Origin: a virus
IMG/VR virus record: IMGVR_UViG_3300032286_001377
Location: 1-64,000 of that record
Reading direction: 5' to 3' (one strand)
Length of the DNA stretch: 64,000 nt
How positions within the stretch are numbered: position 1 is the first letter of the stretch; the number at the start of each line of letters is the position of its first letter. Positions 1 through 17,383 of the stretch are shown here, in pieces. A model generated the notes under the pieces. It made no database searches. It had not been told where the DNA came from and saw only the letters and a list, made by a program, of their open reading frames with translations. The position numbers were made by a program, and so were the translations under genes.

Positions 1-144
1 AGTGCCGGTAGGTCCAGTAGCACCGGCTGCACCAGCAGTGCCGGTAGGGCCAGTAGCACCGGCTGCACCAGCAGTGCCGGTAGGGCCAGTAGCACCGGCT
101 GCACCAGCAGTGCCGGTAGGGCCGGTAGCACCAGCTGAACCGAC
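1..144 (-). repeat. 36-bp tandem repeat encoding collagen-like triplets
   Basis: Units at 1-36, 37-72 and 73-108 are nearly identical (one base differs at position 12 of the unit). A fourth at 109-144 is degenerate. Each unit encodes four Gly-X-Y triplets on the minus strand. Such DNA repeats can expand or contract by slippage or recombination, changing stalk length without a frameshift. Confidence 0.9.
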
Positions 145-1809
145 AGGGCCGGTAGCACCGGCTGCACCAGAAGCGCCGGTAGGTCCGGTAGGACCAGCCG
201 CTCCGGTAGGTCCAGCAAGTGTAGAATTGACCCAAGCTGTACCATTCCAAACTAAAGTTTGATTAGGTAATATACTAAATATAGATACATCACTAATATC
301 ATCTAAAATTACAGACCCCATTGCTGTACTATGATCCAAAAGATCATGTCTAGCATCTGTAAGATATTGAGTATGGTCATCATCAGAAAGGCCTGTAAGA
401 GATCCGTGATCAGATACAGCAGTAGACGGTATCGAAGATGAAATAGAGTCTGCTCGTCTTATGTCAATAACAGAAACAAATTTAGATTTTGGAACATTAG
501 TATAAGTATTAGCTGTTTTAATAACTATTTTATAAAGAGGCCTGAACTCAAAAATAGGAAGCCCAGATAAATTCATTGAAGACCAATCAATACCTTCAGC
601 TGCACCTTGTGTATTGTATTGATCTTGTCCAAGGATACAAATAATCGGTTCGTTAAGATTATTTGTTGCTACGATCCATGAAATAGCAAACTTGTTATTA
701 CCAACATCAGGAGTTGTCCATGTGCCAGCTGTATCAAGGTTATATGTTATATGTGAAGTTCCAAACTTCATTGGATATTGTGTTGCCGTATCTTTTATCC
801 ACGCAGTACCAGAAAGGTAGAATACTGGAATATAAGCGCCACCCTGAAGCCTTTGTTGCCAAGTATTTACTACAGGAGTAGCAGAATGGGTTACGGATAT
901 TTTATAATCTTCATCATAAAATATCCCATTGGCAATGTCGATTTTTGCATCTGCATTTGATGAGCCAGTACCGATAATTGTATATCCGTTAGCCCCAAAA
1001 CCACTCGCAATAGCCGCACCGCGAGTCATATGTAGATACTCATGAGTTTGCCAGTCCATGGTCACACCATGGCGTTCATCTCCAAAGAAAAACATTTTTG
1101 CGGTGGGACTATACCAGTAGATGTAGCAAACTGGAACTTGATTGGCTAAATCAAAAAATGTTGTACCATAATTTAATACACCATTAACATCATAGTATAT
1201 GTAATATAAACCAGTAGTATTCGGTATTGTTACAGTTTCGGTTCCAGTCTTAATATACTGCAACCCTTTTGCCCAAAATTCATAATAACCAATAGTTGGC
1301 GCAATAGAAAATGTTCTATTAACTTCATTAAATGAAATATTACTTGTTCCATATGAAACGAAACCCATAGGTTCATTAGATGGAAGTGTTGTATTAACCC
1401 ACTCTGCACCATCGTATTTAAGAATTTGTCCAGCTACAGCACTAGATATAGAAACATCTATTGCATCATTTAATGCAAATGATGCCGATAAAAACTTTGT
1501 TCCATCAAACTTTAAAACGTGATCTATTACCGCACCAGTAGTATCAATTTCAATGCCATTTACAAATATACTATCAACATATACAGAACTAGGGAGACTT
1601 ACAGTGTAAGCTCCCGAAGTTTCTGTAACATTTATTTGATTTACTGTACCAGATATACTGGTTATAAGCTTAGAGCCGACAATACTTCCAGATGCATTCT
1701 TGTAGAAGAGTTTGCCATCACTATAATTTAATGCTAACTCACCAAATGCTAGAGAAGCAGGTGCAACCGCAGCTGTGCCAGAACGTTTTAACTGAATTAC
1801 ATTAGCCAT
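1..1809 (-). CDS. collagen-like phage tail/receptor fibre, 3' end cut off by window edge
   Basis: A reading frame without stops runs from an ATG at 1809 (preceded by GAGGTG at good spacing) to base 1, at least 603 codons. The N-terminus contains [20 protein letters not shown], a sequence type common at the start of phage tail fibres and tropism proteins. Near residue 500 is [11 protein letters not shown], another frequent fibre motif. The last 75 or so visible codons are Gly-X-Y triplets ([12 protein letters not shown]), a collagen-like triple-helix stalk. It is probably a trimeric host-recognition fibre exposed on the virion. The true C-terminus lies left of the window, so the receptor-binding tip is not seen. 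It is the first gene downstream of the small cysteine-rich proteins and the glycan island. The fibre call is firm from motifs; attachment point and receptor are unknown. Confidence 0.85.
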
Positions 1810-8369: not shown

Positions 8370-8386
8370 AAACCATCCTTTCTTAG

Positions 8387-8471
8387 CGGAAAGAATGGGA
8401 TTCGAACCCATGGAAGCTTTCACTTCACACGCTTTCCAGGCGTGCCGATTCGGCCACTCTCGCATCTTTCC
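8387..8471 (-). tRNA. tRNA-Ser(GGA)
   Basis: The acceptor stem GGAAAGA (5' end at 8471) pairs perfectly with TCTTTCC before discriminator G. The anticodon arm is CACGC-CTGGAAA-GCGTG with anticodon GGA, reading UCC/UCU. The variable arm is long, as expected for serine. The T-arm is ATGGG-TTCGAAT-CCCAT. No CCA is encoded. It lies two bases downstream of the other tRNA-Ser, and the reductase gene starts 18 bases after it, so the three probably share a transcript. Confidence 0.95.
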
Positions 8472-8473
8472 AG

Positions 8474-8565
8474 CGGAGAGAGTGGGATTTGAACCCACGG
8501 ATGATCTATTAAACCATCGACATCTTAGCAGGATGTTCCATTAAACCTAGCTCTGGCATCTCTCC
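8474..8565 (-). tRNA. tRNA-Ser(GCT)
   Basis: The acceptor GGAGAGA pairs with TCTCTCC over seven perfect base pairs. The anticodon arm is ACATC-CTGCTAA-GATGT with anticodon GCT, reading AGC/AGU. There is a long serine-type variable arm, and the T-arm is GTGGG-TTCAAAT-CCCAC. No encoded CCA. With tRNA-Ser(GGA) it covers two serine codon boxes; the phage structural proteins in this window are very rich in serine, so supplying serine tRNAs is plausible. Confidence 0.95.
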
Positions 8566-14334: not shown

Positions 14335-14850
14335 TTAATATGTACTAAAATCAGATTCCATATATGCACCTTTTTCTTCTCTGAAAGAGGCTATTTGCAT
14401 AGACTGAATCTTATCCATAAGTTTTCTAGCTGACTCAGAAGCAATTCTGGCAGAAGTCTCAAGAGATTCAGCCAGACTGACAATAGCATCACATGTAACT
14501 AGAGCAGTATATTCTTCTTCTGCTGCAGAGATTGCTGAAGCTTCTCTTTCTGCTTCATTTTTTCCAACTCTATTAGCTTTATAAACTTTCTTATAATTAC
14601 CTTCGATTATTTTAAATTGTGCTCTAGCAATTCCAGCGAATCTTGCTGCACGCCCGTATACATTCGACGTACGAGCGACTAATGAGGCAATCTTATCAAG
14701 ACCAAGATCGATAACATCAGTCTCTGGTATCTCTACAAAGTAGTTACTTTGACTATCCATTCTACTATATGCATCAATAACTTCTCTAAGTTGTGGTCCT
14801 AGGAAATCTTTTAATAAGTCTTGCAATTTCTCCATTGATTGGAGGTTCAT
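14335..14850 (-). CDS. helical protein, possibly UvsY-like recombination mediator
   Basis: 171 residues, almost wholly helical by composition. ARFAGIARAQFKIIEGNYKK, a charged NEAEREAS region and EYTALVTCDAIVSLAESLET, then SARIASESARKLMDK. The order (helix with K/Y, acidic hinge, late helix rich in S/A/R) recalls T4 UvsY, a recombination mediator, and the gene sits among nucleases and RNase H. No diagnostic motif proves it, and no RecA/UvsX is in the window. Treat as hypothesis; a structural protein is the alternative. Confidence 0.5.
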   Translation of the reverse strand: MNLQSMEKLQDLLKDFLGPQLREVIDAYSRMDSQSNYFVEIPETDVIDLGLDKIASLVARTSNVYGRAARFAGIARAQFKIIEGNYKKVYKANRVGKNEAEREASAISAAEEEYTALVTCDAIVSLAESLETSARIASESARKLMDKIQSMQIASFREEKGAYMESDFSTY

Positions 14851-14851
14851 A

Positions 14852-15697
14852 TCATTTCTCCATCTTAATAAGTGAAGTAAATTCTATCATATCTAACTCT
14901 AGAATTGCATCTTTAATCTTGTTTTTAATTTTTGAAAGGTGTTCACGTACTGTATTTGGATGTTCATTTATTTTCTGCGATATTTCGCTAGACCTTTGCC
15001 CATCTACAAATCTCCATTTTAAAAGCTGTCGCTCTTGTACACTAAGTCTATCAAAAGGAATCATATTCTTTTCGCCAAGGACCCAAAACTCATCTATCTT
15101 TTCGGCAGCAAGTAGTTGCTCGATACTATACTCTACAGGATCTGCTTTAAATCCTATCACAAAATTCTCATCGCTTTCATCCATAGTTGCATCATCGGCT
15201 AATAATGGAAAAGTTTTTCTTCCAAGCTGATCAATTAAGAATACATCCACGTTCTTTTTTAACAGATAAAAGAAATAACTGTACAAGAAACCACTAAAAG
15301 GGATAGGACCCTTTCTCTCATATCTTGTTATACATTGAAAGAAGGTCATATGGACTGTCTGTCTAATATCTTCTTCATCACAATATCTTTTAGTCATATA
15401 ATGTATACCTCTCATGCATTCATTGATATGTTTCAATTGTGTATTATTCATTTTATTTTTCATTAACGCAAAACGTACAAATGGATCTTTTATAAAAAGA
15501 GAAATAAATCTTCTAATATCATAATCATTTAAATTAAACTTTCCATGATGCAATAATGAAACATACTTAGTTAAAAAATTATGGAAAACATTTAACAACT
15601 CTTCTTGAGATTTCTTCATTCCTCTTTTTGCGTCAGCTATAAGAGCCTGCATCTCTTCTTCTTCAAGAGAATAATATTGCTCCTTGAAACTACTCAT
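14852..15697 (-). CDS. sigma-70-family-like transcription factor
   Basis: 281 residues from the ATG at 15697 (AAGGGA upstream; the longer frame starts at a TTG). A region 2-like segment lies at about 107-147 (CDEEDIRQTVHMTFFQCITR then FSGFLYSYFFYLLKK, with the D.vQ.....f pattern). Region 4 lies at 216-262: FDRLSVQERQLLKWRF, then RSSEISQKINEHPNTVREHL, a helix-turn-helix that would read -35 DNA. Regions 1 and 3 look missing or divergent, as in ECF sigmas. It probably redirects host RNA polymerase to later phage promoters. It starts with an ATGA overlap behind the nuclease gene, downstream of a strong promoter. Confidence 0.75.
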   Translation of the reverse strand: MSSFKEQYYSLEEEEMQALIADAKRGMKKSQEELLNVFHNFLTKYVSLLHHGKFNLNDYDIRRFISLFIKDPFVRFALMKNKMNNTQLKHINECMRGIHYMTKRYCDEEDIRQTVHMTFFQCITRYERKGPIPFSGFLYSYFFYLLKKNVDVFLIDQLGRKTFPLLADDATMDESDENFVIGFKADPVEYSIEQLLAAEKIDEFWVLGEKNMIPFDRLSVQERQLLKWRFVDGQRSSEISQKINEHPNTVREHLSKIKNKIKDAILELDMIEFTSLIKMEK

Positions 15698-16260
15698 TTT
15701 TTCCCTTCCCAATTTATAAGATATTTACTGTACGAATCTCTTATATCTTCGTAGAAGACGATATTGGGAACTTCTAAATCAGCCATAAAATTTTTAGCTT
15801 CATTGGAATACTTACTTATCACACAAGTCATTGAACTAAATTCTTCTGGAAAATATCTCTTAAATCTTTTAAGTTTAATTTTACTTTTATCATCTAAATA
15901 ACCTTTTATTTCCAACCATTCATCATGAGCTGGAAAATAAAAATCAGGAGTGTAACCCTTTGTTCCTCTCTTTATCGGGAAAGGAAAAACTGTAGGTTCA
16001 AATTGATATTCTATTTTATATATATGTAATACTCTTACAAAATTAGCTTCCCAACTTGAACGAACATTTAAATCTATATCTTTTCTATATCCAGTTCTAG
16101 TATGCTGAAAAGCGTTACCTGCTTTTCTTTTAAGAATACCATCGTTCTCTTCTATGCCTTTGTCGATTTGTCGATTTAAAATGTTATTCAAATTAGGATG
16201 TTTTTTATAAGGAGATTTTTCCAAAAAAAAGTCCATAGAATTTGTTATATTGAGATCCAT
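15694..16260 (-). CDS. PD-(D/E)XK nuclease, resolvase-like
   Basis: 188 residues. NVRSSWEANFVRVLH gives the conserved N-terminal Glu helix. YTPDFYFPAHDEWLEIKGY carries the PD...EIK core catalytic signature, and ISKYSNEAKNFMADLEV follows. This resembles phage Holliday-junction resolvase or T7 endonuclease I-like nucleases and homologues of Tn7 TnsA. It likely acts in DNA debranching or recombination. First gene downstream of a consensus promoter and cotranscribed with the sigma-like factor. Confidence 0.75.
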   Translation of the reverse strand: MDLNITNSMDFFLEKSPYKKHPNLNNILNRQIDKGIEENDGILKRKAGNAFQHTRTGYRKDIDLNVRSSWEANFVRVLHIYKIEYQFEPTVFPFPIKRGTKGYTPDFYFPAHDEWLEIKGYLDDKSKIKLKRFKRYFPEEFSSMTCVISKYSNEAKNFMADLEVPNIVFYEDIRDSYSKYLINWEGKK

Positions 16261-16293
16261 TCTGGTATCCTGTCAAACTATAATGCTTCAAGT

Positions 16294-16322
16294 ATTATAC
16301 ACCAGTTAATAAAATTGTTCAA
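16294..16322 (-). promoter_or_regulatory. strong sigma70-like promoter, leftward
   Basis: Minus strand: TTGAAC (16317-16322), 17-base spacer, TATAAT (16294-16299). Expected start near 16287, giving a leader of about 25 bases before the nuclease ATG at 16260. It is back to back with the rightward promoter, the two -35 boxes being only 5 bp apart. Confidence 0.85.
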
Positions 16323-16327
16323 ATCAT

Positions 16328-16356
16328 TTGACAACATAACACGAAAGAGATAACAT
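16328..16356 (+). promoter_or_regulatory. strong sigma70-like promoter, rightward
   Basis: TTGACA (16328-16333, perfect), 17-base spacer, TAACAT (16351-16356, 4 of 6). Expected start at about 16363-16364, the same place as the ATG of the only plus-strand gene, so the transcript would be leaderless. Confidence 0.82.
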
Positions 16357-16363
16357 ACAAGCC

Positions 16364-16537
16364 ATGAACACACTTAACACCCTCACGAACAGCATCCTCC
16401 AGTCAATCAACGAAGAGATTATTGATGATCTTGTAAACCTTGGTTTTGATCACGAGGAAGCAGTAAAAGTTGTAACCGAGTATGATGGATTTGATTTCGT
16501 TACAGATGCGATGGACAATCCTTCAGATTTATTCTGA
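16364..16537 (+). CDS. 57-aa UBA-like protein, only plus-strand gene, leaderless
   Basis: MNTLNTLTNSILQSINEEII, then DDLVNLGFDHEEAVKVVTEY and DGFDFVTDAMDNPSDLF. The 'LvnLGFdheeAvkvv..y.Gf' pattern matches the consensus of ubiquitin-associated (UBA) and EF-Ts-type three-helix domains ('L..MGF....A..AL....G'). Acidic. Codons end in G or C far more often than in neighbouring genes. It has its own consensus promoter with the start at the ATG, and a textbook terminator 25 bases after the stop. No ribosome-binding site is present, consistent with leaderless translation. The function is unknown; a host-directed or transferred small gene is the best inference. Confidence 0.8.
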   Translation: MNTLNTLTNSILQSINEEIIDDLVNLGFDHEEAVKVVTEYDGFDFVTDAMDNPSDLF

Positions 16538-16561
16538 TTTAATATAAATACCTAACAAAGG

Positions 16562-16587
16562 GCCGGGGGTTAATCCCCCGGCTTTTT
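16562..16587 (+). terminator. strong rho-independent terminator
   Basis: GCCGGGGG (16562-16569), loop TTAAT, CCCCCGGC (16575-16582), then TTTTT. An 8-bp all-GC stem plus T5 on the plus strand, ending the UBA-like gene. It also lies 2 bases beyond the end of the convergent Cas4-like gene, but the minus-strand flank lacks a T-run. Confidence 0.92.
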
Positions 16588-16588
16588 G

Positions 16589-17383
16589 CTATCTATTCCT
16601 ATTCCTGTTTCTAAAAGCTCCAATCCCACATGCGCCAGAGCTTGCATGATCGCAGTAAGAACAAATTCTTCCATTAGAAGTTGGAGTAAAGTTAGTGTCA
16701 TTAATAATTTTATTAATATTATCAATTACTTTTTGTTTAACTAATTCAATTTCATCTGGAGAAAATGTGTGACCTTTTCTTTTTCCAGATCGAAGGTAAT
16801 AAAGTTCTGCATGAACTTCTTTATCCTTAAAAAGATTTGCAGCTGCAAGGGCGTATATACCGAGCTGTAAATTATTTGGAACCTCTTTAAGAGAGACTTC
16901 CCACTTACCGGTTTTATAGTCGATGATATTTACCCTATTTCCAATAATATCAACTCGATCAATAAAACCTCTTATTCTATAGGAGCCAATAACTAAATCA
17001 AATGACATTTCTTTATCAAAGATATTAAATGATTTATCACTATGCTCATCGTAAAATTCATCAAGAATAGCCCTACCGACTTGTATAAGATCGTTAGGAA
17101 TCCTATTATCAGGATCCCATTCTGGAATTATTTTTTCATACTCATCTTTTAGTTCATCTAAAAGAAGTTCTTTATCATTATCTAAAATATTTTCCAATAC
17201 TTCATGAACAATATTTCCCAAAACGGCGGGCGGATTGAACTGCCTAGGTTCTTTTAACACATAAGAATAAAAGTACTTCGCAGCACAAGAGTTATATGTA
17301 TCTATTCTTGAATAAGAAAAATCAACTAGTGCTAACTTTTCTAAATCAGATAGATGTTCAAAATTTTTAACATCAATACTCAA
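16589..17383 (-). CDS. Cas4/RecB-like PD-(D/E)XK exonuclease with Fe-S cysteines, TTG start
   Basis: 264 residues. FSYSRIDTYNSCAAKYFY contains Cys33 and the RecB-type N-terminal helix. His60 and Asp142 (FIDRVD), then IIDYKTG (Asp155, Lys157) and the QLGIYALA motif, make the complete nuclease site. C241, C244 and C252 near the C-terminus complete a four-Cys cluster like that of Cas4, AddB and Dna2. It likely resects DNA during recombination or host DNA degradation. The TTG at 17383 is the only good start (GGAG just upstream; no in-frame ATG). There is no CRISPR array nearby. The C-terminus is an odd Arg-Asn repeat (RNRNRNR). Confidence 0.85.
   Translation of the reverse strand: MSIDVKNFEHLSDLEKLALVDFSYSRIDTYNSCAAKYFYSYVLKEPRQFNPPAVLGNIVHEVLENILDNDKELLLDELKDEYEKIIPEWDPDNRIPNDLIQVGRAILDEFYDEHSDKSFNIFDKEMSFDLVIGSYRIRGFIDRVDIIGNRVNIIDYKTGKWEVSLKEVPNNLQLGIYALAAANLFKDKEVHAELYYLRSGKRKGHTFSPDEIELVKQKVIDNINKIINDTNFTPTSNGRICSYCDHASSGACGIGAFRNRNRNR

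What the first reader, a model, noticed from the sequence alone, without database searches (positions are those of the whole stretch)
16260..16590. Lone plus-strand UBA-like gene with face-to-face promoters and a textbook terminator
In 64 kb of otherwise minus-strand genes one small gene points the other way. It has a perfect TTGACA-17-TAACAT promoter, a GC-only hairpin with T5 after its stop, C/G-ending codons unlike its neighbours, and a UBA/EF-Ts-like helical motif (LVNLGFDHEEAVKVV). It looks like a moron: an independently transcribed cargo gene, possibly binding ubiquitin-fold-like or translation partners of the host.
Basis: partly seen in the sequence, partly recalled or inferred. Interest (0 to 1): 0.75.

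Follow-up and report, generated by a model that had tools for sequence, protein, structure and literature searches.

The report
Conserved leaderless UBA-like actinophage microprotein gene
This is a real gene, kept in one place by a whole family of large uncultured viruses of lake actinobacteria; it makes a tiny acidic helical protein from its own promoter, probably from an mRNA that begins at the start codon itself, and is more likely a core viral tool that grips a partner protein than recently picked-up cargo.

Summary
The 57-codon plus-strand ORF (16364-16537) is a genuine gene. At least 119 IMG/VR loci encode it, and 79 of 80 loci chosen only by a neighbouring gene carry it at the same spot, opposite to its neighbours. 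It is therefore a core gene, not a moron. The protein is under strong purifying selection (pairwise dN/dS mostly 0.01-0.13). The promoters are back-to-back, not face-to-face. In 24 of 39 distinct upstream regions TTGNNN-17-TANNNT ends 6-7 nt before the ATG, with C at -1 in 23 of 24 and usually no Shine-Dalgarno; 14 others have a Shine-Dalgarno and no such promoter. I infer a leaderless mRNA, which fits an actinobacterial host (WhiB in 6 of 9 large relatives). Terminator hairpins are kept in 37 of 40. GC-ending codons are enriched here and in relatives. A UBA-like three-helix fold is likely but unproven: Pfam UBA E=1.4e-4, just under cut-off; AlphaFold pLDDT 75; best specific relative RuvA domain III; no EF-Ts signal. 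The C-terminal Phe is invariant, as in the phage's own SSB. Best explanation: an early, well-expressed adaptor protein, perhaps acting in replication or recombination. The partner is unknown. In passing: a conserved +1 frame change at a CGG codon in the adjacent sigma-like gene of 83 related loci.

The parts
16364..16537 (+). 57-aa acidic (net charge -12) UBA-like gene with invariant C-terminal Phe
   Evidence: ORF; at least 119 relatives; purifying selection; alignments A3/A5
16328..16333 (+). -35 TTGACA of the gene's own promoter
   Evidence: TTG conserved at -36 to -34 in relatives
16351..16356 (+). -10 TAACAT (TANNNT), ending 7 nt before the ATG
   Evidence: conserved position in 24 of 39 distinct upstream regions
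16363..16364 (+). inferred transcription start: C at -1, A of the ATG as +1 (leaderless)
   Evidence: C at -1 in 23/24 leaderless against 1/14 leadered relatives; inference, no RNA data
16406..16468 (+). stretch matching the first 21 of 37 positions of Pfam UBA
16532..16534 (+). codon of the invariant C-terminal phenylalanine
   Evidence: Phe is last in 40/40 representative members
16556..16588 (+). intrinsic terminator, shared with the convergent nuclease gene in position
   Evidence: a hairpin plus T run found in 37/40 representatives with diverged sequence
16294..16322 (-). divergent promoter TTGAAC-17-TATAAT of the resolvase operon, back-to-back with the gene's promoter
   Evidence: TTGNNN-17-TATAAT-like arrangement in most representatives
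15694..16260 (-). endonuclease / Holliday-junction resolvase-like gene, divergent neighbour
   Evidence: PHROG 9019 E=1.8e-16
16589..17383 (-). PD-(D/E)XK Cas4/AddB-like nuclease, convergent neighbour
   Evidence: Pfam PDDEXK_1 2.5e-36
14852..15712 (-). sigma-70-like factor downstream of the resolvase
   Evidence: TIGR02937 4.2e-9, below cut-off; PHROG 1740
14335..14850 (-). lineage marker gene used as an independent probe for the locus
   Evidence: 397 relatives in IMG/VR; none among phage isolate records

Best explanation
A conserved one-gene transcription unit of a lineage of large phages of freshwater actinobacteria. Host-type RNA polymerase reads it from a housekeeping-type promoter whose start point is inferred to be the A of the ATG, so the mRNA is leaderless in this lineage; other clades use a Shine-Dalgarno leader instead. 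A strong terminator, shared in position with the convergent nuclease gene, ends it. GC-enriched codons suggest high expression, probably early. The product is a small, very acidic, probably UBA-like three-helix protein that works as a protein-protein adaptor, gripping a partner through its helical patch and/or its C-terminal Phe tip. The most likely partners are replication or recombination proteins, because the nearest specific relative is RuvA domain III, the tip resembles the phage SSB tail, and the neighbours are resolvase, nuclease, sigma-like and polymerase genes. Shown by sequence: gene reality, core status, selection, promoter/ATG geometry, terminator. Inferred: leaderless start, timing, level, fold, partner.
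For: 79 of 80 neighbour-selected loci carry it in constant synteny. Pairwise dN/dS mostly 0.01-0.13, one 0.26; pooled pN/pS 0.15. TTGNNN-17-TANNNT-6/7-ATG in 24 of 39 upstream regions under 80% identical, a tree of 40 loci showing at least 4 switches between the two modes. -1 C in 23/24 against 1/14 (p=3.5e-8); SD in 14/14 leadered against 4/24 leaderless (p=3e-7), two of the four inside the -10. In M. tuberculosis leaderless starts are common and TSSs have TANNNT upstream, C at -1, A at +1, T at +2 (PMC3898074). WhiB in 6/9 large relatives, control only Corynebacterium. Terminator in 37/40. Pfam UBA in 23/57 members, UBA_7 12, RuvA_C 6 at E<=1. AF2 pLDDT 74.7, helices 2-25, 30-39, 45-51. RuvA domain III is the top Foldseek hit and scores 20.7 in hhalign against at most 11.9 in controls. 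Terminal Phe 40/40; SSB ends SVPDEF or SIPSSF.
Against: No RNA or protein data. No fold match is significant (Foldseek best E=1.1); the Pfam hit covers 21 of 37 positions and stays below cut-off; pTM is 0.48. The hhalign match spans 20 columns at 28% probability. No phage RuvB above cut-off was found, so a RuvB partner would have to be the host's. SSB-tail resemblance is loose, and 5-7% of ORFs in these phages end in Phe. WhiB was not found in the window's own record, which may be a fragment.
Confidence: 0.5

Rival explanations
1. Early host-takeover protein: the acidic microprotein binds a host machine such as RNA polymerase, a nuclease or a defence protein, possibly as a nucleic-acid mimic like T7 gp5.9, independent of the phage replisome.
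For: Housekeeping-type promoter, gene oriented away from its neighbours, small size, net charge -6 to -13 in the members tabulated. Small phage proteins that block host enzymes are known: gp5.9 on RecBCD (PMC9836394, abstract seen; its DNA mimicry is from my own knowledge).
Against: No PADLOC match; very strong conservation over a broad lineage is unusual for arms-race proteins; RuvA/UBA-type helical motifs suggest a docking domain rather than a DNA mimic; expression timing unknown.
Confidence: 0.28
2. Recently acquired, independently transcribed moron cargo gene.
For: Own promoter and terminator, unusual codon usage, opposite strand.
Against: Present in 79 of 80 neighbour-selected loci with conserved synteny and conserved codon bias in relatives; no homologue found in the bacterial genome collection (only a chance-like hit in an unrelated protein) or in phage isolates.
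Confidence: 0.04
3. The functional product is a small or antisense RNA with a terminator, and the ORF is incidental.
For: Short unit of about 225 nt with a strong terminator; synonymous rate somewhat lower in codons 2-18 (pS 0.45 against 0.63).
Against: Low dN/dS throughout and length changes in multiples of three; no Rfam match.
Confidence: 0.04
4. The gene is translated from a longer leader, and the promoter at -36/-8 is a coincidence of common descent.
For: 14 of 39 upstream regions do carry a Shine-Dalgarno leader; related sequences are not independent; no RNA data.
Against: Hexamers and -1 C stay fixed while the spacer varies among upstream regions under 80% identical; the arrangement is mutually exclusive with the Shine-Dalgarno state; only one plausible gene start in the window has the exact geometry.
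Confidence: 0.12

Closest known systems
UBA / UBA-like domains (Pfam PF00627, PF22562)
   Same: Three predicted helices, LG[FY] turn between helices 1 and 2, several UBA-type models hit members independently
   Different: Below curated cut-offs; only 21 of 37 positions align; free-standing, highly acidic, in a phage; no evidence of ubiquitin-like binding
RuvA domain III (RuvA_C, PF07499)
   Same: Best specific match: Foldseek rank 1, RuvA_C in 6 members with best E 1e-3, hhalign above controls
   Different: Free-standing 57 aa with no RuvA domains I/II; longer first helix; none of the matches is significant alone
EF-Ts N-terminal domain (TS-N)
   Same: UBA-type topology; shares the Pfam UBA/TS-N family name
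   Different: No profile similarity (hhalign E=0.62), though the test is insensitive at fold level
SSB C-terminal tip (E. coli DDDIPF; phage SSBs)
   Same: Acidic tail and invariant C-terminal Phe; the phage's own SSB also ends in Phe
   Different: Usual tip here is NPVxxF or SDSDF, not DDDIPF; binding untested
Leaderless genes of actinobacteria (PMC3898074, PMC3160421)
   Same: TANNNT ending just before the ATG, C at -1, A at +1, no Shine-Dalgarno
   Different: A phage gene; has a conserved TTG -35 with a fixed 17-nt spacer; some clades of the same gene are leadered

Membership tests
UBA/TS-N domain (PF00627) | Score above Pfam gathering cut-off | tested here: not met
   22.1 bits against 22.4; no record over cut-off
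UBA/TS-N domain (PF00627) | Compact three-helix bundle | tested here: inconclusive
   Three helices predicted, pLDDT 74.7, pTM 0.48; no Foldseek match below E=1
UBA/TS-N domain (PF00627) | Binds ubiquitin or ubiquitin-like partner | not testable with these tools
   needs a binding assay
EF-Ts N-terminal domain | Profile similarity to TS-N | tested here: not met
   hhalign E=0.62, score in the range of controls
RuvA domain III | Profile and fold similarity to RuvA_C | tested here: inconclusive
   hhalign E=6.5e-4, probability 28%, 20 columns; Foldseek E=1.1
RuvA domain III | Part of a RuvA protein with domains I and II | tested here: not met
   protein is 54-68 aa in all complete members
SSB C-terminal tip proteins | C-terminal Phe on an acidic tail | tested here: met
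   Phe last in 40/40 representatives, tails mostly acidic
SSB C-terminal tip proteins | Binds an SSB-interacting protein through the tip | not testable with these tools
   needs a peptide-binding assay
Leaderless mRNA | -10 element placed so that transcription starts at the ATG | tested here: met
   6-7 nt from TANNNT to ATG, C at -1 in 23/24
Leaderless mRNA | Mapped 5' end at the start codon | not testable with these tools
   no RNA data for these phages
Phage moron | Variable presence between close relatives at a fixed site | tested here: not met
   79 of 80 neighbour-selected loci have it
Phage moron | Own promoter and terminator | tested here: met
   (sequence signals only)

The most novel reading that the evidence does not exclude
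A free-standing RuvA-domain-III-like docking module with an SSB-like C-terminal Phe tip, made from a leaderless mRNA early in infection, which captures host RuvB or SSB-tip-binding proteins and redirects Holliday-junction processing to the phage's own divergently transcribed resolvase.
Probability: 0.12. Interest if true: 0.7.

Novelty: new variant of a known kind. Interest (0 to 1): 0.5.

Why it matters
The gene appears to be a core component, present in nearly every locus examined, of an uncultured lineage of large actinobacterial phages, yet it scores below threshold in Pfam and PHROGs and was not found in phage isolate records. It is a natural case in which one orthologous phage gene is leaderless in some clades and Shine-Dalgarno-led in others (at least 4 switches), useful for asking when phages favour leaderless translation. 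If the UBA-like fold and Phe tip are confirmed, it would be a very small docking module and a lead to how these lake viruses handle host or phage DNA machinery.

Tried and rejected
Phage isolate search with two members: nothing meaningful. Bacterial genome scan: one hit, L089, an internal match in a long unrelated protein. PDB sequence searches: only repeat-protein or marginal matches. First AlphaFold job with a 21-row alignment: pLDDT 59, replaced by the 57-row job. PADLOC: none. Rfam: only two tRNAs. SSB-tail covariation with the small protein's tail: not testable, since no SSB was found in 17 further records, probably because they are fragments. Phage RuvB: none above cut-off. Stop-codon reassignment as the cause of split neighbour genes: rejected, the splits are frame changes, not one reused stop codon. 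Plus promoter of the Shine-Dalgarno clades: not identified.

Full report
Observation. The 57-codon ORF at 16364-16537 (+) exists. Upstream, TTGACA-17-TAACAT ends 7 nt before the ATG; downstream is a GC-rich hairpin with a T run. A single-site promoter scan is no better than chance (10 found, 14.6 expected), so conservation had to decide. The promoters are back-to-back: the minus promoter TTGAAC-17-TATAAT lies at 16322-16294, its -35 five bases from the plus -35. The two could hardly be occupied at once (inference).

Relatives. A first scan gave 5 relatives, an alignment scan 86 and a wider alignment 119. To avoid choosing loci by the gene itself, I scanned with the neighbouring family 14335-14850 only: 79 of the 80 loci returned carry the small gene at the same place. 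Synteny with resolvase, sigma-like, nuclease and DnaE genes is constant in the loci inspected. The gene is core, not a moron. Pairwise dN/dS is mostly 0.01-0.13, with one pair at 0.26 and some saturated, and pooled pN/pS is 0.15.

Expression signals. Of 39 upstream regions under 80% identical, 24 have TTGNNN-17-TANNNT ending 6-7 nt before the ATG (one with an 18-nt spacer), 14 are Shine-Dalgarno-led and one is ambiguous (window and L002 counted once). The automatic pattern search itself listed 23; L161 was reassigned by hand to a start at ATT. Base -1 is C in 23/24 leaderless and 1/14 leadered members (Fisher p=3.5e-8; related sequences are not fully independent). A Shine-Dalgarno core lies 4-12 nt upstream in 14/14 leadered and 4/24 leaderless, two of these four inside the -10. 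A tree from four neighbouring proteins needs at least 4 switches. In M. tuberculosis TANNNT lies upstream of most TSSs, C is common at -1 and T at +2, and 26% of genes with a primary TSS are leaderless (PMC3898074). WhiB, a marker of actinobacteria and their phages, is above cut-off in 6 of 9 large relatives and in the controls only in Corynebacterium; whiB-encoding freshwater actinophages are known (PMC10914622). The window's record itself showed no WhiB; it may be a fragment. Hairpins with diverged sequence are found in 37/40 representatives. GC3 is 0.42 here against 0.23 (1.2% of chunks reach it), and 0.54 and 0.60 in two relatives against 0.27 and 0.28. I read this as codon adaptation; that is inference.

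Protein. Complete members are 54-68 aa and those tabulated carry net charge -6 to -13. Pfam UBA is the most frequent match (23 of 57 members at E<=1), followed by UBA_7 (12), mTERF (7) and RuvA_C (6); the window protein scores 22.1 bits against a 22.4 cut-off over 21 of 37 positions. AlphaFold with 57 sequences gives three helices at pLDDT 74.7, pTM 0.48. Foldseek has nothing significant; RuvA domain III ranks first at E=1.1. In hhalign the family scores 20.7 against a RuvA domain III profile, with 28% probability over 20 columns; column shuffles and unrelated segments reach at most 11.9. EF-Ts TS-N gives E=0.62, but RuvA domain III against TS-N also fails (E=0.32), so that test cannot exclude a shared fold. 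The last residue is Phe in 40/40 representatives although tail length varies. The phage SSB also ends in Phe, as SVPDEF or SIPSSF. Since 5-7% of ORFs end in Phe, the parallel is a lead, not proof.

Mechanism. I favour an early, abundant adaptor acting on replication or recombination proteins; overall 0.5, with the leaderless unit near 0.85, the UBA-like fold near 0.6 and a RuvB or SSB-tip partner near 0.25. No phage RuvB exceeded the cut-off, so a RuvB partner would be the host's. The main rival is a host-takeover inhibitor.

Side finding. In 83 related loci (24 distinct junctions) the adjacent sigma-like gene changes frame by +1 at an invariant CGG codon, while 137 loci read it in one frame, as the window does (some loci are overlapping pieces of the same contig). 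This looks like programmed +1 frameshifting; it was not pursued further.

Noticed in passing
sigma-like gene, window 14852-15712 (one frame here); L014, L031, L067, L056, L210, L220 and others: In 83 loci (24 distinct junction sequences) of relatives the gene changes frame by +1 at NNN-CGG-N, CGG invariant, P-site codon mostly CGA; the +1 frame restores the Gly-Ile motif. Looks like programmed +1 frameshifting in a phage sigma factor.
   Followed up: partly
L161-L166: In this clade the small gene's conserved start appears to be ATT after TATAATGTCCACC, unless the ATG overlapping the -10 is used.
   Followed up: no
G002 and G003 proteins, e.g. L232:716-1735, L254:9471-9944: Several unannotated proteins end in acidic tails with PF or F (GSDPDPF, DDSDDPF), resembling SSB tips.
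   Followed up: partly
window 1-1809 (-): Open-ended collagen-like (Gly-X-Y repeat) gene, probably a tail fibre.
   Followed up: no
window 8386-8565 (-): Two adjacent tRNA-Ser genes (anticodons gga and gct).
   Followed up: no
upstream of the small gene in representatives: A purine-rich GAAAG tract sits just before the -10 in leaderless members, similar to the Shine-Dalgarno of leadered ones; a short deletion could switch modes (speculation).
   Followed up: no
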